DNA of 64,000 bases from Candidatus Parvarchaeota archaeon (GTDB lineage: Archaea; Nanobdellota; Nanobdellia; CSSed11-243R1): assembly GCA_015522785.1 (NCBI GenBank), contig WALP01000002.1, forward strand, positions 1 through 64,000, read 5' to 3'. Below, in pieces: positions 5,700 through 38,895 of this stretch (its first letter is position 1; every line of letters begins with the position of its first letter). The notes under the pieces are model-generated. The model was not told the origin of the DNA, made no database searches, and saw only the letters and a list, made by a program, of their open reading frames with translations. Both the position numbers and the translations under genes were made by a program.

Positions 5700-6101
5700 T
5701 CTTTTTGATAATTCTGCTAATGGATGCCCCTTCACCTTCGTTTCAAATTCCTTGTAGTACCCAAACGGCGCCCTAAAAACTTCAACGTCTTTTTCCTTAG
5801 CAAAAGCCTCCATCTCTTTCAATATTGTTATTGCTATAGATGGTGTAGCCAAGTCATTTGAGAGATGAGCATAGGGGTAAATCAAAATTGAGTCTGCCTT
5901 GACTTCATCCATTTGTTTTTTTATGGCAACAATTGCATTGCGGGCTGTCTCTGGGTCGTCGCCTTTTTCAACGGAAACCAAAGCGACAACAACATTTCGG
6001 AATTCCTTTTCCTCGCCGTCCCTGTTTTCAGGGAGGGTTTTCATCGCTGGTTTTGTTACCCTATACTTAAAATAATCGCAATGCCACTGAAGTAATTTCA
6101 T
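5694..6101 (-). CDS. Stand-alone archaeal ThrRS editing domain
   Basis: 135 residues matching the N-terminal editing domain of archaeal threonyl-tRNA synthetases, a D-aminoacyl-tRNA-deacylase-like fold that hydrolyses mischarged Ser-tRNA(Thr). Support: MKLLQWHCDYFKYRV at the N-terminus and the downstream LIYPYAHLSNDLATPSIAI and FRAPFGYYKEFETKVKGHPL segments. In most euryarchaea this domain is fused to the synthetase; here it is a separate gene two positions downstream of the catalytic gene. The first seven codons are duplicated upstream around a hairpin insert (see repeat). Confidence 0.88.
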   Translation of the reverse strand: MKLLQWHCDYFKYRVTKPAMKTLPENRDGEEKEFRNVVVALVSVEKGDDPETARNAIVAIKKQMDEVKADSILIYPYAHLSNDLATPSIAITILKEMEAFAKEKDVEVFRAPFGYYKEFETKVKGHPLAELSKRL

Positions 6102-6172
6102 AAAATACCCCCTTCTTTTCCCTTAAGGCTTTTCTTTTGAAGAAAAGGCTTATGCCACTGAAGTAATTTCAT
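6081..6172. repeat. 21-bp direct repeat flanking a hairpin insertion at a start codon
   Basis: Positions 6081-6101 and 6152-6172 are identical over 21 bases and encode the ATG plus six codons of the editing gene (MKLLQWH). The 50-base spacer 6102-6151 contains a near-perfect hairpin (AAGGCTTTTCTT/AAGAAAAGGCTT, one mismatch). The hairpin is related to those inside the tRNA introns of this window. It looks like an insertion with target duplication, or a local tandem duplication. Confidence 0.8.
6098..6172 (-). CDS. 24-codon leader ORF created by the duplication
   Basis: Starts at the upstream copy of the editing-gene ATG, which has the better ribosome-binding site (GGAGTG about 8 bases before). 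It reads through the hairpin insert and ends in an ATGA overlap with the real start at 6101. It could couple translation to the editing gene. It may equally be a by-product of the duplication with no function. Confidence 0.35.
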   Translation of the reverse strand: MKLLQWHKPFLQKKSLKGKEGGIL

Positions 6173-6178
6173 GATGTA

Positions 6179-6484
6179 TCACTCCTTATTATCCGATATC
6201 TCCATCTCAATAGATTTGATTTCTTTCTTCATCTTTTTGAACTTATTGGGGATATAATAAAAATTGATGAACGCTAGGATTGACGCGATTCCATTTAATA
6301 AGATAAACAATATTTCTCCTACTTGAACACTATAAATCGTAAATGAAATCACTCCCAGCAAAAAGAAAAGATTAACAAAAATATCGCCGTTGTTGCGCCC
6401 ATTTTTTATGACTATCAGCGTTAAAATTATCCACGCGATTAAAAAGAACACAACTGCTAATAATCCTGCAAACAACCTCATCAC
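6179..6484 (-). CDS. Small membrane protein between the two ThrRS genes
   Basis: 101 residues with about three to four hydrophobic segments (4-26, 35-54, 55-75) and a charged C-terminal tail. No family is recognised. Its ATG overlaps the stop of the ThrRS catalytic gene in an ATGA arrangement, so it is translated from the same operon. Nothing in the sequence ties it to aminoacylation. Confidence 0.7.
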   Translation of the reverse strand: MMRLFAGLLAVVFFLIAWIILTLIVIKNGRNNGDIFVNLFFLLGVISFTIYSVQVGEILFILLNGIASILAFINFYYIPNKFKKMKKEIKSIEMEISDNKE

Positions 6485-7983
6485 TTCCTCGCATAAAATA
6501 TGGGCTGTTTAGAAATATATTTAGGAACTGGAAGCGGCCATATAGGCATCCCTTTTATATCCTCAAGTATTATCTCTATCAACTCATCAATTGTTAAGTT
6601 ATCTATCGTATCCTTTTTGACTTCACTTTTCTCCCGAACTACAACAGGAAGTTTGTTTGATTCCATTTCCTTGTCGCCTATAACAATAATGTATGGCGTC
6701 CACGCCTGCTTAGCTTGGAATACTTTCTTGGAAACGCTAAGACTTCTGTCATCAACAGATACCCTAATTCCTTTATCCTCAAGTTGTTTTGCTATTTTCT
6801 CAACAAATTCCAAATGCCTATCTGCAATAGGAAGCAGCCTTACTTGCTCAGGCGACAGCCACACGGGAAGCATACCTGCTTTACCTTGTTGCTCGTCAAG
6901 CCACGCCTTCTCAAGAAGAGAGTACATCACTCTTTCGATTGCACCGCTTGGAGAAAGGTGGAGTATAAGCGGATGCTTCTTCTTATTGTCGCTATCAATA
7001 TATGTTATTTCATATCTTTCTGCGTTCTCCACATCAAACTGGTCTGTAACCAACGCCGTCGCTTTGTCCATTGAATCTATATAATTCCATTCGTATTTCA
7101 TGGAAAAATAGAAGAACCTTTTGTCCCACATCTCAATAAGCGCGGGCTTGCCCCATCTGTTGACGAGCTCCTTTGCGAAGTCCTTGTGTTCCTCGTAAAA
7201 ATCTCTAACAAACCTTATCCCAAGTTCGAAGTCATTAGGAAGATTAAAACCTATACCGCTCATTATTTTTTTGGACAACTCAAATCTTTTCAGCATTTCT
7301 TCTTTTCCTTGTATATAATCTTTAACAAAAGCGTGGCAGTCGGGCATTGTAAATGCGCGAAGCCTTTTCAATCCGACCAATTCGCCAGACTGTTCAAGCC
7401 GAAAGCTGTATCTCGTCATTTCATATAATCGCAATGGGAGGTGCTTGTATGAAATATTCATGTCACGCGCCATTAAAAACTGCCCGAAGCATGCAGCGAA
7501 CCTCAAAAAAAATGTTCTCTTTCCGCTCGATTCAACGACATACTGCCTTGCAGGAAATCTATTCAAATATTTTTTGAGAGCAGGATGATTGTAATCATAC
7601 ATAATTGGTGTTTCAACTTCCATAGCGTATTCACTTAGTTTTTTTGAAACAAATGTTTCCAGCATTCTCTTAACAAAACGGCCTCTTGGATAGTACTTCA
7701 AATTACCCAAGTCACTTCCTTTCTCATAGTCAACCATCTCAAGCTTCTTCATCAATTCAACATGAGGAGGCTCTTTGTCATATACCCTTCTTTTAGCAAT
7801 TTCATATGTTGCGAACTTAAGCAAATTGGGGTATTTTGAGAAATCAAATCCATCTATCTTTTTTCCGTCAAATTTTATTTCATGCAGCTGCCCGTCCAAA
7901 TCCAAAACATACCATTTAGATTTAATTTTTTCCTCCGCTTTGAGGGCTTCAGAAACTTCCTGTTTATTGTTTTTTTTATCCAT
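6481..7983 (-). CDS. thrS: Threonyl-tRNA synthetase, catalytic subunit lacking editing domain
   Basis: 500 residues from ATG 7983, preceded by GGTGAT; a frame extension to 8013 adds ten residues without a better site. Class II motifs are present: motif 2 YEMTRYSFRLEQSGELVGLKR and motif 3 HLSPSGAIERVMYSL, followed by a C-terminal anticodon-binding domain (PVWLSPEQVRLLPIADRHLEF to the end). The archaeal editing domain is missing from the N-terminus and is encoded separately at 5694-6101. Split catalytic and editing genes are known in some Crenarchaeota. The order here (catalytic, membrane ORF, editing) implies co-expression. Confidence 0.92.
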   Translation of the reverse strand: MDKKNNKQEVSEALKAEEKIKSKWYVLDLDGQLHEIKFDGKKIDGFDFSKYPNLLKFATYEIAKRRVYDKEPPHVELMKKLEMVDYEKGSDLGNLKYYPRGRFVKRMLETFVSKKLSEYAMEVETPIMYDYNHPALKKYLNRFPARQYVVESSGKRTFFLRFAACFGQFLMARDMNISYKHLPLRLYEMTRYSFRLEQSGELVGLKRLRAFTMPDCHAFVKDYIQGKEEMLKRFELSKKIMSGIGFNLPNDFELGIRFVRDFYEEHKDFAKELVNRWGKPALIEMWDKRFFYFSMKYEWNYIDSMDKATALVTDQFDVENAERYEITYIDSDNKKKHPLILHLSPSGAIERVMYSLLEKAWLDEQQGKAGMLPVWLSPEQVRLLPIADRHLEFVEKIAKQLEDKGIRVSVDDRSLSVSKKVFQAKQAWTPYIIVIGDKEMESNKLPVVVREKSEVKKDTIDNLTIDELIEIILEDIKGMPIWPLPVPKYISKQPIFYARK

Positions 7984-16023: not shown

Positions 16024-16635
16024 ATGGAAAAAGAAGTTATTGAAGGAATAAAAAATTTTCTTAAAAAATATGACTTAAAATGGTACAAAGAGCGCTACAT
16101 GTTTCAGGCGCCGGAAAGCAGATATGAGATGGTAAAACTTTTCCGTGAGAGTTATAAGAAAAACAATGAGGCACTCGACAAGAACATAATCAAACGAACT
16201 CTGAGGTGGGCATTCTTCAACGACAGGCGCTATCTTGGAATTTTTCTAAAGAATGTTGACAAAGAAAGCGAAAGCAAAATAAAGGAAATCACAAGAGAAG
16301 GACTGCAGTTAGCAAAGGAAGGAAAGATAAAAGAAGCAGTAAGAAAACTAATTGAGATAAAAGGAGTTGGCAATGTGACCGCTTCAAAGCTCTTGATGTT
16401 CACCTTCCCAAACCTTTTTGGTATGTATGACCAGTTTAACGGAAAGGCGATTTACAACCTAAAAGTCGGCGGGAAACCTTATTTCAAGGCAAGCAATCCG
16501 AACAAGCTGACGAAAAAGCAGTTCGCGGAAGAATTTGAGAAATACACTTATGTGCTTCGCGAAATCGCAAAAATTCTTAAAATGAAACCCATGGAAGTTG
16601 ACATGGCACTTTTTAGAATGGGGCGCGGTTATTGA
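16024..16635 (+). CDS. Helix-hairpin-helix protein, possible DNA glycosylase-like
   Basis: 203 residues, helical and basic. A helix-hairpin-helix motif is visible at about residues 107-128 (IEIKGVGNVTASKLLMFTFP) followed by NLFGMYDQ, where a conserved aspartate of HhH glycosylases would sit. No iron-sulfur cysteines are present. The family is not recognised and catalytic activity is inferred. It overlaps the next gene by 4 bases (ATGA-type coupling). Confidence 0.6.
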   Translation: MEKEVIEGIKNFLKKYDLKWYKERYMFQAPESRYEMVKLFRESYKKNNEALDKNIIKRTLRWAFFNDRRYLGIFLKNVDKESESKIKEITREGLQLAKEGKIKEAVRKLIEIKGVGNVTASKLLMFTFPNLFGMYDQFNGKAIYNLKVGGKPYFKASNPNKLTKKQFAEEFEKYTYVLREIAKILKMKPMEVDMALFRMGRGY

Positions 16636-32769: not shown

Positions 32770-33651
32770 TTATTTGCCGACTGCCTTCTTAATCTGCCAT
32801 TTCAATCTCCTAAGAGACTCCAAATCCAAAGCCCTCTGCCCGCTTAACATTGATGTGAAAAGTATTGGGATCTTGCCATTTGACAATTCTACTCTATGAA
32901 ATCCCTCTTTTTCAAAATTACTATCATCAATTTTAATTTTCTTATTAGCTGCATCATAATACATTATTATCTTGGAAGAGAGAGCATTAGCAACGACGAT
33001 TACCTTAGGCTCAATCATATCTATCAATCCCAATGATATCTCTAACTGATCCTTTCCAAACTCATTTAAAGAGACACTTTGGATTTTACTCTTGCTCATT
33101 TTCTCCTTATAATTTATACATTTCTTTAAATCATCTTGAGACGTTGTTCTGTAGAAAAATAAATCAATATGTTCCCATTTGTTTTCATCCCCAAAGACAT
33201 ATTTTGAAATCTCTTTTAACTTTTTAAAATACTTATTATACCTACTTTTTGCTACCTTTTCAAAGTCGATCAACTCATTACACATCTTGATAAATTCCTC
33301 TGTATATTGCCGCTTACCATTGGACTTCTTGACTTTTCTTTCTCGTTTTTCTTCCGGCCACCATTCAAAACTTTCTACATCTTTTATGAACCTAAATTCT
33401 TTAGGCACTGGAAGTTTTTTAGCTTCTTCGAGAATCTTCTTAACACCATCATCTGAAAGAGAAGGATTTAACCCAATAAATAAAATACCACCTTTATTAA
33501 ACTCAGAAATCAATAATGGAAAACATTTATTTGGTATCTTTTTCTTACTCTTCTTGTTTTTCTTCTCCGGGCACTTTATCTTATCTGGATTTTCCTCCCA
33601 CAGCCTTATAATTTGTTCGTTTATCTCCTTATTTTCCACTTCCATCACCAT
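32770..33651 (-). CDS. Uracil-DNA-glycosylase-fold-like protein
   Basis: 293 residues. The order of motifs resembles the UDG superfamily: ILFIGLNPSLSDDG (motif A-like), HIDLFFYRTT, IEPKVIVVANALSS (central strand) and PILFTSMLSGQRALDLESLRR (motif B-like, but without the usual HPSP). A charged insertion (about 85-120) follows motif A. Substrate and activity cannot be deduced. It is the last gene of the 36532-32770 operon and overlaps the gene before it by 23 bases. Confidence 0.6.
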   Translation of the reverse strand: MVMEVENKEINEQIIRLWEENPDKIKCPEKKNKKSKKKIPNKCFPLLISEFNKGGILFIGLNPSLSDDGVKKILEEAKKLPVPKEFRFIKDVESFEWWPEEKRERKVKKSNGKRQYTEEFIKMCNELIDFEKVAKSRYNKYFKKLKEISKYVFGDENKWEHIDLFFYRTTSQDDLKKCINYKEKMSKSKIQSVSLNEFGKDQLEISLGLIDMIEPKVIVVANALSSKIIMYYDAANKKIKIDDSNFEKEGFHRVELSNGKIPILFTSMLSGQRALDLESLRRLKWQIKKAVGK

Positions 33652-34435
33652 TTGGTTTACTATTTCTCACATATCCAATTATCGCATTATCCACTAACTT
33701 AGGGATAGAGGTATTCCATTTATTGTTACCCAAATCTTTTCTACTTAGTTTAAGTTCGCTTGATATTAATTGGAATTGTCTTAATACCTTAAAATATAAA
33801 TTACCCTCTTCATTTTTGTTGACATTTGGAATAGATTTTTGCCACTTCTCACTTTTCTTACTTTTACTTTTCTTCCACCTACTGTATAGAAAAAATAATA
33901 CATTCCCCCTATCTATTGGTGGGACAGTATCGGGAAGTAAAAAGTGCATTATTTTTGAATTTGCAACCAATTTCGGAGGGGTTTCATTATTCTCCCTCTT
34001 AGCCATAACGATTAAGCCATTAAAAATCAATAAAAGTATATCTTTTATTTCATCAAGATTAATCTCCTGAAATTTTTTTCCCCTTACTATTTCAAGCAAC
34101 TTCACAAAGTTCTTTTTATTACTAACAATTGACCTTTTAAAATCCTCAAACTCTGCCATTCTCGTATATTTATCCATTCTATGCATACCCCATGATGCAA
34201 GAGTGGCATATAGACATTCCATAAAGTATTCATTAGAAAACAACGAAATGTATTTTTCAGTGTCGTACTCTGTTTTTTTTACTGTATCAACAACCTTAAA
34301 GTAAAAATAAGCAGATGGCCCACCAAAGGTTTCCACACCCTTTTTAACATACTCGAGAAATTTCTTCTTATTCTTTATTAGCTCACTAATATTCTCTTTG
34401 TTCAACTTTCTTTCCCAACTAATCTTTTTACCCAA
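33629..34435 (-). CDS. Conserved-looking hypothetical protein of accessory operon
   Basis: 268 residues, helical, with ATLASWGMHRMDKYTRMAEFEDF and SKIMHFLLPDTVPPIDRGNV. Similar LLPD-VPPIDR strings occur in uncharacterised proteins I associate with restriction or defence neighbourhoods; this association is from memory and unverified. No catalytic motif is evident. Tightly coupled to the UDG-like gene (23-base overlap) and 16 bases after the Cdc48-N-like gene. Confidence 0.6.
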   Translation of the reverse strand: MGKKISWERKLNKENISELIKNKKKFLEYVKKGVETFGGPSAYFYFKVVDTVKKTEYDTEKYISLFSNEYFMECLYATLASWGMHRMDKYTRMAEFEDFKRSIVSNKKNFVKLLEIVRGKKFQEINLDEIKDILLLIFNGLIVMAKRENNETPPKLVANSKIMHFLLPDTVPPIDRGNVLFFLYSRWKKSKSKKSEKWQKSIPNVNKNEEGNLYFKVLRQFQLISSELKLSRKDLGNNKWNTSIPKLVDNAIIGYVRNSKPNGDGSGK

Positions 34436-34451
34436 AATCTCATCTCCTTTT

Positions 34452-35849
34452 TTACAGTATCATTATTCCACCATCATTATTGAATTTATCGTTGGTTATT
34501 TCTTCGCCCTTGAAGTTCTCTTTGTCTATTTCCTCCTGATGAATTGCAAAATCTTTATACCTCAATGTCAATCCCTTCGTGAAAAAGTCAGCCATGCAGT
34601 CGTCTATCTTTCCCGGCTCTGGAAAGAATTTACAACATTCTCTGAGAGTATCATAAACTTCCTTAAATGCATCATTCTTGAACTCGCTTACCTCTACCCC
34701 ACATATTTGCCTCAAAGATAACATGACAAGGTCGTCGTATTTCATAACTGGATTATACATAGAATCATACCATAGAGTAAAATATGTTCTTAACAGCTCA
34801 AAAAATATTTTGTCCTTGCTAATTTTTTCAAGTCTTTTTCTTAATTCCCTCGTCTTTTCCTCAAATTCTTTCTCTGCAACGGAAAATGGATCCTCTTTAA
34901 CCACATCATGTGACCCTTCATCCTTCACCTCTCCGCACTCGGGTAAATTCTCAAAAAACTTAACTGCCGCTCTATCGATATATGATGACTCGCATAAAGA
35001 CAGTATAACCTTAATTGTTTCCTCAGAAAGCTTTCTCCAGTTAGACTCATCAACAGAGTAAACCCTTTTGCCATTTACATGTTTCATAGATAATACTCCA
35101 TTGGCATGTAATGTTTTTAACACATCAATAACTCTAAAATCTCCAGACGTGGGAGAAGTAGATACATAATCCTTAAAAAGAAATGGATACACACCCTCTG
35201 TCAAGGCTCTTGCGATTAGTGAACCACTTGAATCTAAAAGATACCAATCTATATCAGATTCTGCTCCCGCCGTTGCATCGTATTTGAAAGTAACTTTGGT
35301 ATCCTTCGTGACTCTCCCTATTCCATTTGGTTCCACTTTCACTACAAAAAAATCTACGTCGTAAATTCTTGGCATTTCCTCATCAAGCATCTTGGTATTA
35401 CTACGAATTATATCAGAGAATAATGAAGGAATATCCTTAGAAACCGGAAAATTGACCTTTATTTTTTCATTCACTTGAACGATCCTATCTCTTAACATTT
35501 TGTTTGCTAGCTCCTGTGGAATGCTTAGTTCCAAATCATCAACATCATACGCAAGCACTACTTCTCTTGCCTCTGCAGATATATCTCTTCTTTCAATACT
35601 AACCTTTTCATTTATCCCAACATTCAATTCTCGCCTCAACAACCAATCAATGTATACTCTTCGCCCATTTTCTCCTGATGATTTAACTACTACAAACTTT
35701 GAGATAGATCCATCTTGATTACTAATACTCACTACATCACTATCTTTGAGCATAAGTTGCTTCATGATATACTCATCCAGCAAAACTATGTTAGGATTAC
35801 CATCTTGCAAAGGCCTCACAATACCCGAAACAACTTTTATTTCTTCCAT
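34452..35849 (-). CDS. Cdc48-N-domain-like protein without AAA module
   Basis: 465 residues. Residues about 1-180 resemble the two-lobed N domain of Cdc48/VAT: a double-psi barrel (VLLDEYIMKQLMLKDSDVVSI to KVSIERR) and a second lobe reaching FFVVKVEPNGIGRVTKDTKVTF. A winged-helix-like segment follows (FRVIDVLKTLHANGVLSM, about 245-285), then a helical C-terminus with several cysteines. No Walker motifs are present, so it is not an ATPase. It could be an adaptor linking a partner to DNA or to p97-type machinery. It starts 11 bases after the regulator gene. Confidence 0.6.
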   Translation of the reverse strand: MEEIKVVSGIVRPLQDGNPNIVLLDEYIMKQLMLKDSDVVSISNQDGSISKFVVVKSSGENGRRVYIDWLLRRELNVGINEKVSIERRDISAEAREVVLAYDVDDLELSIPQELANKMLRDRIVQVNEKIKVNFPVSKDIPSLFSDIIRSNTKMLDEEMPRIYDVDFFVVKVEPNGIGRVTKDTKVTFKYDATAGAESDIDWYLLDSSGSLIARALTEGVYPFLFKDYVSTSPTSGDFRVIDVLKTLHANGVLSMKHVNGKRVYSVDESNWRKLSEETIKVILSLCESSYIDRAAVKFFENLPECGEVKDEGSHDVVKEDPFSVAEKEFEEKTRELRKRLEKISKDKIFFELLRTYFTLWYDSMYNPVMKYDDLVMLSLRQICGVEVSEFKNDAFKEVYDTLRECCKFFPEPGKIDDCMADFFTKGLTLRYKDFAIHQEEIDKENFKGEEITNDKFNNDGGIMIL

Positions 35850-35860
35850 TATATCACCTC

Positions 35861-36532
35861 TTATTTTTTGTAATTAGAAACAAATTCATTGAATATGTTT
35901 GCATAAGCGGCATTTCTAACAAGATACTTTTGTATTGGTCTGATTAATCTGTAAATCTTCTTAGCTTCCTCTGGAGCATCGCGCGAAGGTGATTTCAAAA
36001 CTGCTAGCCCATCTATTATATTGTCGAGTATAGATGAAAGAGACATGTCCACATAAAAACTCACCTTAAGTAAGTTACATAAGAAGTTTAAAACCATCAT
36101 TTGCAAGAGATTACTCTCAGACAATTTTTGTATCCTTCTACGAACATCATTAAGAGTAGTTTTTACTTTCTTTTCACTTATTTTTCCCATCTCCAACATA
36201 TCATAGAGATTATATTCAACTCTAAGCGACATCTTTTCCATAAGATATTCCATAAATTTAGAAATATCAAAATACAGGTGCCTTTCTCTACCAACTTTTT
36301 TACTCTCTAAAAGTTCAAGAGAAACAACTGGCGAATTCTTAACAAGTTTTTCCAAATGTTCTTGTATTGTTGAATGTTTCAAAGTTACATTACCTCTTTT
36401 TAATCTTTTTTCTAAATCGACAATCCTTGTTGGCCTACCTTCATAAGTATTAGATGCACAAATCAACACAATTTCCCCTAACCTAAATGAATAAAAAAGC
36501 CTGCCAAATTTATCTTCAATTGAGAATTTCAT
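35861..36532 (-). CDS. Winged-helix transcriptional regulator-like protein
   Basis: 223 residues. The N-terminal 100 residues look like a winged HTH (IVDLEKRLKRGNVTLKHSTIQEHLEKL, then a hairpin KKVGRERHLYFDI). The rest is helical and could be a sensor or dimerisation domain. As the promoter-proximal gene of the four-gene operon it is the likely autoregulator. A TATA-like CTTTATATA is at about 36556-36564. Confidence 0.65.
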   Translation of the reverse strand: MKFSIEDKFGRLFYSFRLGEIVLICASNTYEGRPTRIVDLEKRLKRGNVTLKHSTIQEHLEKLVKNSPVVSLELLESKKVGRERHLYFDISKFMEYLMEKMSLRVEYNLYDMLEMGKISEKKVKTTLNDVRRRIQKLSESNLLQMMVLNFLCNLLKVSFYVDMSLSSILDNIIDGLAVLKSPSRDAPEEAKKIYRLIRPIQKYLVRNAAYANIFNEFVSNYKK

Positions 36533-36689
36533 ATAAACATATAAGCAATTCTTGTATATAAAGGGCGACCCTGCGAATTAAAGTTTGAGTATTTTGCGAG
36601 CATCCTAGAGAAACGAGTATTAATAGATTAAAGAGTGGGGAAACCTGCGAATTCATTTATAAATGATCACCGACATCCTCTCGCTAAGA
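36533..36689. promoter_or_regulatory. Promoter region of accessory operon with short repeat
   Basis: 157 bases between TFB and the regulator. On the minus strand CTTTATATA lies about 25 bases upstream of the regulator ATG. CCTGCGAATT occurs twice (about 36571 and 36648), a possible operator half-site pair. No gene is seen. Confidence 0.45.
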
Positions 36690-37529
36690 TTAATCCCCGC
36701 TAATCCTCTCAGCAAACTTTTTCAGCTCGACAACATCAATTTTGTCGATTAGTTTTTGGAAATTTTCGCGGAGGGCTGGCTCAGAAACGTGGGCATATCT
36801 GGCAATATCCCTTTGGTTCATAGGTATCTTCAAAATCGCGGCAGCCACATAAATTGAAGCCGCAGCGAGCATCATCGGGTTGTCAGTTGTCTTTGCCTTT
36901 GCTGCTTTCATAGCAACAGTCGCAAGCTGTCCGTTGTAACCCATGTCGGAGCTTATTCTTAGGATGTAAGAATCAACATTCCCAACAGGCTTCATAGGTA
37001 TCTTTAGCTCCCTGCAGATTTTCCTGTAGGCGCGAAGAACTTTCACCCGGCTGACTCCGTAAGTTTCCTCAAAATCGTCAAAAAAGACAGGTATGCCCTG
37101 CCGCTTTGAGACAATGTAAGTTGCAGCTGCGAGTATCTCAAGCTTTGAGGCGCGCTTCGTGAGTTTCCTTTCAACGCATTCCCTGCATATTTTTATGACT
37201 CCAGCTTCGACTTGCTTTTTTAGATCCATCTTTTTTATTTCGGCGTAGAATGGAGCCATAGCTTTTTCCACATTTGTCTTAAGAATTCCGTTGAGTATGA
37301 CTGCCATCTTTTTCTTTTTTGGATTGACAAGAACTTTCACGGCTTTGCTTCCGTGCATAGCCTCTATAATTGGGACTTCCTCGCTAATCACAAAGCCGCA
37401 GTTTCGGCAGACCAGCTCGGATCTTTTGTCGTCAAAATAAAGTTTTGTCGAGCCGCATTCAGGACATTTGTCTATAAATTCAACTTGATTCCGAGGGGCA
37501 GAGAAGATAGTTTTTCTCAAAGGCACCAC
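36690..37529 (-). CDS. tfb: Transcription factor B paralogue
   Basis: 279 residues. N-terminal zinc ribbon CPECGSTKLYFDDKRSELVCRNCG, then two cyclin folds (about 100-185 and 195-275; AAATYIVSKRQGIPV and AAASIYVAAAILKIP). The B-reader/linker between ribbon and first fold is atypical (EVPIIEAMHGSKAVKVLV) and lacks the usual DRGPEWR-like string. It may be the only TFB of the genome or a specialised copy. It sits within the putative island. Confidence 0.9.
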   Translation of the reverse strand: MVPLRKTIFSAPRNQVEFIDKCPECGSTKLYFDDKRSELVCRNCGFVISEEVPIIEAMHGSKAVKVLVNPKKKKMAVILNGILKTNVEKAMAPFYAEIKKMDLKKQVEAGVIKICRECVERKLTKRASKLEILAAATYIVSKRQGIPVFFDDFEETYGVSRVKVLRAYRKICRELKIPMKPVGNVDSYILRISSDMGYNGQLATVAMKAAKAKTTDNPMMLAAASIYVAAAILKIPMNQRDIARYAHVSEPALRENFQKLIDKIDVVELKKFAERISGD

Positions 37530-37634: not shown

Positions 37635-38132
37635 ATGCCGAAGCTGATAAAGGATGTAGAAGAGATATCCGAAATTGAGAAATGGATGAATGAATCTGAA
37701 AAAGAAGCAAAAAGGTCTAAATGCATAAAATCGCAAGTTGGTGTTGTTATAGTTAAAGATGGTAAGATTATATCAAAAGGTTATAATAAAATAATGACCG
37801 AAGACCCAAATCTTGTAAAAGATGGTTATTGTAACCCATGCATTCGAGAAGAAATCCATGATAATTCTCTAGTCGAAAGGTGTTATGCCATCCATGCTGA
37901 ACAAATGGCACTAATACATGCAAAAGAAGATTTAGAAAGTGCGATAATGTATCATGTTAAGTTAAAACATGGAAAGCGAGTCCCAATAGAATCTCCGACA
38001 TGTACAGTATGCAACAGAATGATAAAAGAAGCAGGTGTTTATTTTGTGTGTCTCCAGGAGGAGGGATATGTTATTTATTCACCCAATGAAATTGTCGAAA
38101 TATCATTTAAAAAACTTTTAGGTCACATATAA
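37635..38132 (+). CDS. Cytidine/deoxycytidylate deaminase family protein
   Basis: 165 residues with the deaminase zinc motifs HAEQMAL (HxE) and PTCTVCNRM (PCxxC-like), spaced as in dCMP deaminases. A two-cysteine insert before the HAE (GYCNPCIREE) is as in dCMP deaminase relatives. Substrate (dCMP, free base or nucleic acid) unknown. It is divergent from TFB and converges on an ASCH gene with a 10-base overlap. Confidence 0.85.
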   Translation: MPKLIKDVEEISEIEKWMNESEKEAKRSKCIKSQVGVVIVKDGKIISKGYNKIMTEDPNLVKDGYCNPCIREEIHDNSLVERCYAIHAEQMALIHAKEDLESAIMYHVKLKHGKRVPIESPTCTVCNRMIKEAGVYFVCLQEEGYVIYSPNEIVEISFKKLLGHI

Positions 38133-38554
38133 TTGTCAAGGTTATTATATTTACCAAACTTATCTAATTTAACGATATCTTCGGGCACGTTAAAAAATCC
38201 AAGTCTACCGAGATATTTTACGGGATCAATCTGATGAACGTCCCCTAAGACAAAGCCATACACAGGATATCTATTTGGGGTCGATAAAGAGAGGTGATTT
38301 TCTCTATCCTCCAAGAACATACTTCTATTCCTATACACCTTAACATCAGTTAAGTCAGCATACCCCACGATGTATCCTCTTGTAAGATCCTCCAAATCAA
38401 AATTATAAAAGCTAATAGCCCCTCTATCTACCCCCTTTGAAGCGTGAATCAAAAAGTAACCTCTAAACTTTGTATTCCATGTACGTATTTCTACTGTTTT
38501 TTTCCCTCGGAGGATTAGTTCTACCCATGGTTGTTTAATGGACAAACATTTCAT
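38123..38554 (-). CDS. ASCH-domain protein 1
   Basis: 143 residues. The ASCH start LSIKQPWVELILRGKKTVEIRTW and strand RGYFLIHASKG are clear. ASCH domains are PUA-related beta barrels that bind or process RNA or modified nucleosides. Its ATG overlaps the stop of the second ASCH gene by 4 bases, so the pair is translationally coupled. Confidence 0.85.
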   Translation of the reverse strand: MKCLSIKQPWVELILRGKKTVEIRTWNTKFRGYFLIHASKGVDRGAISFYNFDLEDLTRGYIVGYADLTDVKVYRNRSMFLEDRENHLSLSTPNRYPVYGFVLGDVHQIDPVKYLGRLGFFNVPEDIVKLDKFGKYNNLDNYM

Positions 38555-38895
38555 TCTATCACCTTAAAAAAGATTGCCAACACACCGTTTTCATTTTCCT
38601 TTTCTTCTGGATAGTATTTACGCATTCTCTCAATTTGCTCGTCTAATGTAAGAGATTCATGAGCAAGATAATTTTTCGGGATAAAGGAAAATAGATCTTT
38701 AAAACTAGAAAACCTAGCTAGTCCTTTAACATATACTCTAATTTCACCATCACTACTTAATCTCTTGAATATTATTTCATCACCTAAATTTATCTTTCTT
38801 CTTTTTTCATCGAAAAGCCGAACTTCCACTATTTTTTTACCGGACTTTATCCATTGAAATGGTTCATCGGCAAGATGCATTTCGTGTATTACCAT
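38551..38895 (-). CDS. ASCH-domain protein 2
   Basis: 114 residues with a second, divergent ASCH fold (DEPFQWIKSGKKIVEVRLFDEKR and NLGDEIIFKRL). Similar small proteins include acetylcytidine amidohydrolases of the YqfB type, but the catalytic set cannot be confirmed here. One base separates it from the class I aaRS-like gene, so the three genes form one operon. Confidence 0.82.
   Translation of the reverse strand: MVIHEMHLADEPFQWIKSGKKIVEVRLFDEKRRKINLGDEIIFKRLSSDGEIRVYVKGLARFSSFKDLFSFIPKNYLAHESLTLDEQIERMRKYYPEEKENENGVLAIFFKVIE

What the first reader, a model, noticed from the sequence alone, without database searches (positions are those of the whole stretch)
32770..36532. Unfamiliar four-gene operon: winged-helix regulator, Cdc48-N-like protein, conserved unknown, UDG-like protein
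Gaps of 11 and 16 bases and a 23-base overlap make this a tight unit with its own TATA element. A Cdc48-type N domain without AAA module, followed by a winged helix, would be an unusual adaptor. Pairing it with a uracil-DNA-glycosylase-fold protein lacking the classical HPSP motif suggests nucleic-acid surveillance or defence against modified DNA. I know of no named system with this composition. Function is inference.
Basis: partly seen in the sequence, partly recalled or inferred. Interest (0 to 1): 0.72.

Follow-up and report, generated by a model that had tools for sequence, protein, structure and literature searches.

The report
Glycosylase-like gene pair in archaeal operon
A tiny uncultured archaeon carries an operon of four unannotated genes whose two end genes, a protein with the fold of the DNA-repair enzyme uracil-DNA glycosylase and an unstudied helical partner, also sit together in an unrelated archaeon beside phage-defence genes, so they may form an overlooked base-removal defence or repair pair.

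Summary
The four ORFs, gaps (11 and 16 nt) and 23-nt overlap are real. [quoted passage not shown] B has a Cdc48-type N domain without a Walker A motif or ATPase. C is all-helical, without a known fold match, with a conserved K-x6-P-x6-D motif. All four genes together were found nowhere else; A and B (beyond its N domain) have no relatives. The C-D pair does recur: in a Thermoplasmata contig a D gene overlaps a C-superfamily gene by 8 nt, in an element with a DNA-methylase/restriction-like gene and an integrase. Other C relatives adjoin a bona fide UDG gene and phage methylase/restriction genes, and one lies inside a BREX-5 operon. Best reading: an acquired base-excision or modified-base surveillance cassette, working like Brig1/Brig3, with C-D as core and A/B as regulatory or adaptor parts. 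Function is inferred; a repair role or chance adjacency remains possible.

The parts
35861..36532 (-). Gene A, 223 aa, probable winged-helix protein (HTH about aa 35-93), first gene of the unit; likely autoregulator
   Evidence: ORF; sub-threshold HTH hits; no homologue in 279 phylum genomes, viral contigs or PDB
34452..35849 (-). Gene B, 465 aa, Cdc48-type N domain (aa 18-193, window 35271-35798), no ATPase, then a possible winged helix and a helical C-terminus of no known family
   Evidence: TIGR01243 E 3.8e-12, PF02359 E 1.3e-6, no Walker A; a full-length Cdc48 candidate is encoded elsewhere at G000:C26:18665 in a 763-aa frame
33629..34435 (-). Gene C, 268 aa, all-helical protein of an unnamed family
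   Evidence: Homologues in 3 nanoarchaeal genomes and 4 viral contigs; AF2 pLDDT 84, pTM 0.84; no Foldseek match; no Pfam, PHROG or NCBIfam match
33911..33955 (-). K161-x6-P168-x6-D175 motif of C, invariant in the 8-member family and shared with the D-linked gene of L047 and the BREX-5 gene of Natrinema
   Evidence: Alignments A7 and A9/A10; profile search
32770..33651 (-). Gene D, 293 aa, divergent UDG-superfamily protein
   Evidence: 45 relatives; PF03167 hit in 3 of 38 members, best E 0.003; AF2 pTM 0.87; Foldseek top 50 all UDG superfamily, prob up to 1.00
33460..33474 (-). GLNPS motif of D (G60, N62, P63, S64 invariant), counterpart by motif of TDG/MUG GINPG
   Evidence: Alignment A6
32824..32853 (-). 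SMLSGQRALD segment of D, family consensus SSMLTGQRALDxGSxERLxWHI, at the place of UDG motif 3
   Evidence: Alignment A6
35853..35860 (-). Shine-Dalgarno GAGGTGAT before B, in the A-B gap
   Evidence: Sequence
34439..34449 (-). Shine-Dalgarno AAGGAGATGAG before C (TTG start)
   Evidence: Sequence
36555..36562 (-). TTTATATA, possible TATA box for a leaderless A transcript
   Evidence: Sequence; 15 such octamers in the window, so weak

Best explanation
The unit is an accessory four-gene cassette whose core is the C-D pair. D would flip out and remove (or at least bind) an unusual base in DNA, as UDG-superfamily enzymes do, leaving an abasic site. C would act on the same DNA: as a second base-handling enzyme, a helical glycosylase-like or base-modifying protein using the conserved Lys and Asp, or as the factor that makes D act on foreign or modified DNA. 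A is the local regulator. B, a Cdc48-N domain joined to a probable DNA-binding part, would bind DNA and either recruit the cell's Cdc48 unfoldase or copy its substrate-binding surface. The most likely purpose is defence against a virus or mobile element with modified bases, like Brig1 and Brig3. Shown: the gene layout, the UDG fold of D, the Cdc48-N domain of B, the recurrence of C-D linkage in a second archaeal phylum. Inferred: every catalytic and biological step.
For: D fold. C-D linkage: window overlap of 23 nt and L047, Thermoplasmata, D 5827-6651 with C-like 6644-7273 overlapping by 8 nt. Homology of the L047 partner to C: a profile of that protein plus its Natrinema relative, chosen without C, finds C-family members as its top hits apart from itself and one other window ORF (E 5e-6 for L080, 0.01 for window C); hhalign of the two families Prob 78, E 1.9e-5. 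Context: L047 also holds a 995-aa DNA-methylase/restriction-like gene and a tyrosine integrase (read); C next to a PF03167 UDG gene in L094 (E 9e-11), a BglII-like REase and MTase in L096, an N6 methylase in L095; the C relative in Natrinema lies in a complete BREX-5 operon before pglX; D on a Runella plasmid two genes from an MvaI-type R-M pair. Patchy distribution: D in 3 and C in 4 clear cases of 279 phylum genomes, absent from congeners, typical of acquired defence genes. Known precedent: Brig1 (PMC11078745) and the overlapping-gene operon brig3-bapA (PMC13160076).
Against: No assay. Most D genes stand without C and have mixed neighbours, many of them housekeeping. The window neighbourhood is ordinary (TFB, deaminase, ASCH, membrane protein). 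A and B have no relatives, so their membership rests only on spacing. C matches no known enzyme fold, so its catalytic role is a guess. The post-hoc choice of neighbours inflates the impression of linkage.
Confidence: 0.42

Rival explanations
1. A host DNA-repair operon: D is an ordinary base-excision enzyme for deaminated or oxidised bases and C an accessory repair protein, in a reduced genome, with a dCMP-deaminase-like gene close by.
For: UDG fold with a TDG/MUG-like Asn motif; deaminase-domain gene at 37635-38132 (PF00383 E 1e-13); many D genes in bacteria sit among housekeeping genes.
Against: D occurs in only 3 of 279 phylum genomes and not in the sampled congener, unlike a core repair enzyme. 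C occurs in viral contigs and beside R-M or BREX genes.
Confidence: 0.25
2. Two unrelated accessory insertions side by side: A-B form one module of unknown function and C-D another; the four-gene operon has no joint function.
For: Only C-D linkage recurs; A and B have no relatives; the region differs from the congener G001, where TFB lies near other genes and no A-D gene is seen.
Against: Gaps of 11 and 16 nt with a ribosome-binding site inside each make one transcript likely.
Confidence: 0.22
3. Remnant of a virus or plasmid: C and D are a mobile element's own base-modification or counter-defence genes, left in the chromosome.
For: C relatives in four viral contigs, three of them beside portal or capsid genes; L047 carries an integrase.
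Against: No capsid, integrase or replication gene near the unit in the gene list of the window; most D genes look chromosomal; D had no hit in 50,697 phage records.
Confidence: 0.1

Closest known systems
Brig1 (anti-phage alpha-glucosyl-hmC DNA glycosylase, Nature 2024, PMC11078745)
   Same: A divergent UDG-superfamily protein of similar size (261 aa against 293) whose best structural match is the Sulfolobus tokodaii family 4 UDG (4ZBY), which is also match 2 for D; part of an accessory locus.
Brig3-BapA operon (5hmC glycosylase plus de-glucosylating ASCH protein, PMC13160076)
   Same: UDG-superfamily gene overlapping a partner gene in an operon, as C and D do.
   Different: BapA is an ASCH/beta-barrel protein; C is all-helical. 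The window does have two ASCH-like ORFs 1.6-2.4 kb away, but not in this operon.
MUG/TDG and SMUG1 glycosylases
   Same: UDG fold; GxNP motif with Asn; no HPSP.
   Different: D lacks their motif 3 and has a 60-80 residue insertion after motif A; overall identity about 10%.
Cdc48/VAT N domain (CDC48_N + CDC48_2)
   Same: B aa 18-193 match TIGR01243 positions 15-164.
   Different: No D1/D2 ATPase; about 270 further residues without relatives. A second small standalone Cdc48-N protein exists in G117 (227 aa) in another context.
BREX-5 operon gene NATPE_RS20830 and L047 6644-7273 (unnamed helical family)
   Same: Share the K-x6-P-x6-D segment and 88 aligned columns with C.
   Different: Shorter; sit in BREX or beside D, without A or B. 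Not named in the 2026 BREX survey passages that I could search.

Membership tests
UDG superfamily (PF03167) | Fold: central four-stranded parallel sheet between helices | tested here: met
   AF2 model pTM 0.87; Foldseek top 50 all UDG superfamily, probability 0.99 for the best, E 6e-3, TM-scores low (0.3-0.55) because of insertions
UDG superfamily (PF03167) | Sequence-profile match | tested here: inconclusive
   Window D itself no hit; 3 of 38 family members hit PF03167, best E 0.003
UDG superfamily (PF03167) | Motif A (GEAPG / GQDPY / GINPG / GMNPG) | tested here: met
   GxNPS, invariant in 38 members, closest to the GINPG type
UDG superfamily (PF03167) | Motif 3 (HPSP or NPS) | tested here: not met
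   Replaced by SSMLTGQRALDxGS; also variable among known families
UDG superfamily (PF03167) | Base excision activity | not testable with these tools
   Needs protein
Brig-type anti-phage glycosylases | UDG-superfamily fold | tested here: met
Brig-type anti-phage glycosylases | Sequence kinship to Brig1/2/3 | not tested
   Their sequences are not held; the D profile found nothing in the PDB at E<=10
Brig-type anti-phage glycosylases | Excision of a phage-modified base and immunity | not testable with these tools
   Needs experiment
Cdc48/p97 AAA ATPase | N domain | tested here: met
   TIGR01243 E 3.8e-12 on aa 18-193
Cdc48/p97 AAA ATPase | AAA modules with Walker A | tested here: not met
   No GxxxxGK[ST] in B; the profile match stops at position 164 of 733
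HhH-GPD (OGG/Nth-like) DNA glycosylase, considered for C | Fold match | tested here: not met
   Foldseek of a pTM 0.84 model finds none in PDB or BFVD
HhH-GPD (OGG/Nth-like) DNA glycosylase, considered for C | GVG hairpin followed by Lys and Asp | tested here: not met
   C has Lys and Asp 14 apart but no GVG hairpin; a distant relative, window 16024-16635, has GVGNVTASK...D
Known anti-phage systems (PADLOC 2.0.0) | Model match for any of the four | tested here: not met
Conserved four-gene system | All four genes together at a second locus | tested here: not met

The most novel reading that the evidence does not exclude
C and D are the two enzymes of an undescribed archaeal base-excision defence in which a UDG-superfamily glycosylase works with a new helical base-handling enzyme family that is also an unrecognised component of some BREX-5 operons, and in this genome a Cdc48-N/winged-helix adaptor couples the attacked DNA to the Cdc48 unfoldase.
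Probability: 0.1. Interest if true: 0.82.

Novelty: new variant of a known kind. Interest (0 to 1): 0.5.

Why it matters
Base-removing defence proteins (Brig1, Brig3) were found only since 2024 and only in bacteria by functional screening. D defines a broad, unannotated UDG-superfamily family across bacteria and archaea, and C defines a helical family that recurs beside UDG, restriction, methylase and BREX genes. If the pair acts on modified DNA it would extend base-excision immunity to archaea and give function to two orphan families; even if it is a repair system it assigns a fold to a family that no database names.

Tried and rejected
Looked for a second four-gene locus with each protein: phylum or class samples of whole genomes, viral contigs, plasmids and phages, GTDB contigs for D: none. 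C as an OGG/HhH-GPD enzyme: suggested by the K...D motif but not supported by Foldseek; kept only as a lead. Conserved neighbours of D in bacteria: none recurrent; a few defence hits (HamB, type III REase, HmaC, type I specificity) among 116 neighbours but no control set was scanned, so no enrichment is claimed. C in G032 and D in G226 both lie between EF-2 and EF-1A: at first this looked like a link, but that interval is a general insertion hotspot with unrelated genes, so it is no evidence. Two weak motif hits of A in other genomes (E about 0.002) align only parts and were discarded. The single-sequence hhalign of C with its L047 partner alone is weak (P 0.014; with my own settings P 0.22, no better than random neighbours); the case rests on the two-sequence profile (P 0.0028 against a best of 0.12 in 100 column shuffles, and the hmmsearch ranking).
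Full report
What is there. On the minus strand the window holds four closely packed ORFs: A 36532-35861 (223 aa), B 35849-34452 (465 aa), C 34435-33629 (268 aa) and D 33651-32770 (293 aa). Reading the gaps shows a perfect Shine-Dalgarno sequence before B (GAGGTGAT) and before C (AAGGAGATGAG), which makes the TTG start of C credible and the genes real. The proposed TATA element (TTTATATA, 36562-36555) is well placed for a leaderless A transcript but is as frequent in this AT-rich window as composition predicts (15 copies).

The host. The window lies in a 579-kb, 69%-complete assembly. Neighbours are a TFB, a deaminase-domain protein, two ASCH-like ORFs (one with a Pfam ASCH hit), an aminoacyl-tRNA-synthetase-like protein and a membrane protein. 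The order around TFB differs in the congener G001, where no A-D gene is found, so the unit looks acquired.

D. Single-sequence library searches found nothing. A scan of GTDB contigs with a four-sequence alignment gave 45 loci, mostly Bacteroidota with some archaea, Acidobacteriota, Myxococcota and others. In the 38-member alignment L57, F58, G60, N62, P63, S64, D163 and P215 are invariant; three members hit PF03167, best E 0.003. AlphaFold2 gave pLDDT 84.8 and pTM 0.87. Foldseek against the PDB returned UdgX, family 4 UDG, TDG and MUG in all of its top 50 places, probability 0.99 for the best; TM-scores are low because of large insertions. D is therefore a divergent UDG-superfamily protein. 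Its GxNPS motif resembles GINPG/GMNPG of TDG/MUG/SMUG (established knowledge), in which the Asn is catalytic; equivalence of N62 is inferred.

C. Profile searches found relatives in three other nanoarchaeal genomes and four viral contigs, none named by any library. K161, H164, P168, D175 and D249 are invariant among eight. The model is confident and all-helical (pTM 0.84) but matches nothing solved or in the viral library. In L094 the C gene faces a PF03167 UDG gene (E 9e-11), in L096 it follows a BglII-type REase and methylase, in L095 an N6 methylase, in L093 it lies between portal and capsid genes.

The C-D link. In L047, a Thermoplasmata contig, D (5827-6651) overlaps by 8 nt a 209-aa gene that carries the same K-x6-P-x6-D spacing as C. 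Profile-profile comparison of C with the three-member group gave Prob 78, E 1.9e-5; that group includes the window ORF picked by motif, so I rely more on the two-member test, P 0.0028 against a best of 0.12 in 100 column shuffles. L047 also holds a 995-aa DNA-methylase/restriction-like gene and a tyrosine integrase (my reading). The Natrinema relative lies inside a complete BREX-5 operon, between a BrxC-sized gene and pglX. So C-superfamily genes keep company with UDG, restriction, methylation and BREX genes, and C-D overlap occurs in two archaeal phyla in opposite gene order. This is suggestive but rests on few loci.

A and B. B aa 18-193 match the Cdc48 N domain and there is no ATPase motif. 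The only other free-standing example seen is a 227-aa protein in G117. The remaining two thirds of B and all of A have no relatives. Their link to C-D rests on spacing alone.

Mechanism. I judge most likely that D attacks or senses an unusual base, C assists or acts on the same DNA, and A/B regulate or connect the pair to other machinery, as part of defence against modified foreign DNA. Brig1 (PMC11078745) and brig3-bapA (PMC13160076) show that UDG-superfamily proteins can work this way, alone or with an overlapping partner gene. DefensePredictor (PMC13092281) lists UDG and other base-modification domains among predicted but untested defence domains. Repair, unrelated neighbours and mobile-element origin remain open.

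Limits. No enrichment statistic is claimed.

Noticed in passing
window 16024-16635 (+): A 203-aa ORF with IKGVGNVTASKLLMFTFPNLFGMYD, an HhH-GPD-like hairpin followed by the K-x6-P-x6-D spacing of C; BLASTP E 1e-6 with the D-linked gene of L047. A second, perhaps more canonical member of the C superfamily in the same genome.
   Followed up: partly
L161 10752-11297 (Natrinema pellirubrum plasmid pNATPE02, NATPE_RS20830): A distant C relative annotated as hypothetical is embedded in a BREX-5 operon directly before pglX; it may be an unnamed BREX-5 component.
   Followed up: partly
window 38123-38554 and 38551-38895 (-): Two adjacent ASCH-like ORFs (the second hits PF04266; the first was not scanned and is ASCH-like by reading) about 1.6 kb from gene A. 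BapA, the partner of Brig3, is an ASCH protein; here TFB and a plus-strand deaminase gene lie between, so this may be coincidence.
   Followed up: no
L031, L029 and L141-L153: The EF-2 to EF-1A interval in one nanoarchaeal family is an insertion hotspot, judged from start-to-start distances of 2.2 to 13.7 kb, holding varied single genes, among them a C gene in G032 and a D gene in G226.
   Followed up: yes
L028 7324-8007 (+), G117: A free-standing 227-aa Cdc48-N protein without ATPase, on a short contig with a probable CARF-winged-helix (Csa3-like, by reading) protein.
   Followed up: no
L030 7211-7726 (-), G008: D homologue of a Parvarchaeota genome lacks the C-terminal third, perhaps frameshifted or degraded.
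   Followed up: no
window 36690-37529 (-): An additional TFB beside the one on contig C30; its orthologues in G001 and G003 are only 44-47% identical, and the G001 match contains stop codons.
   Followed up: partly
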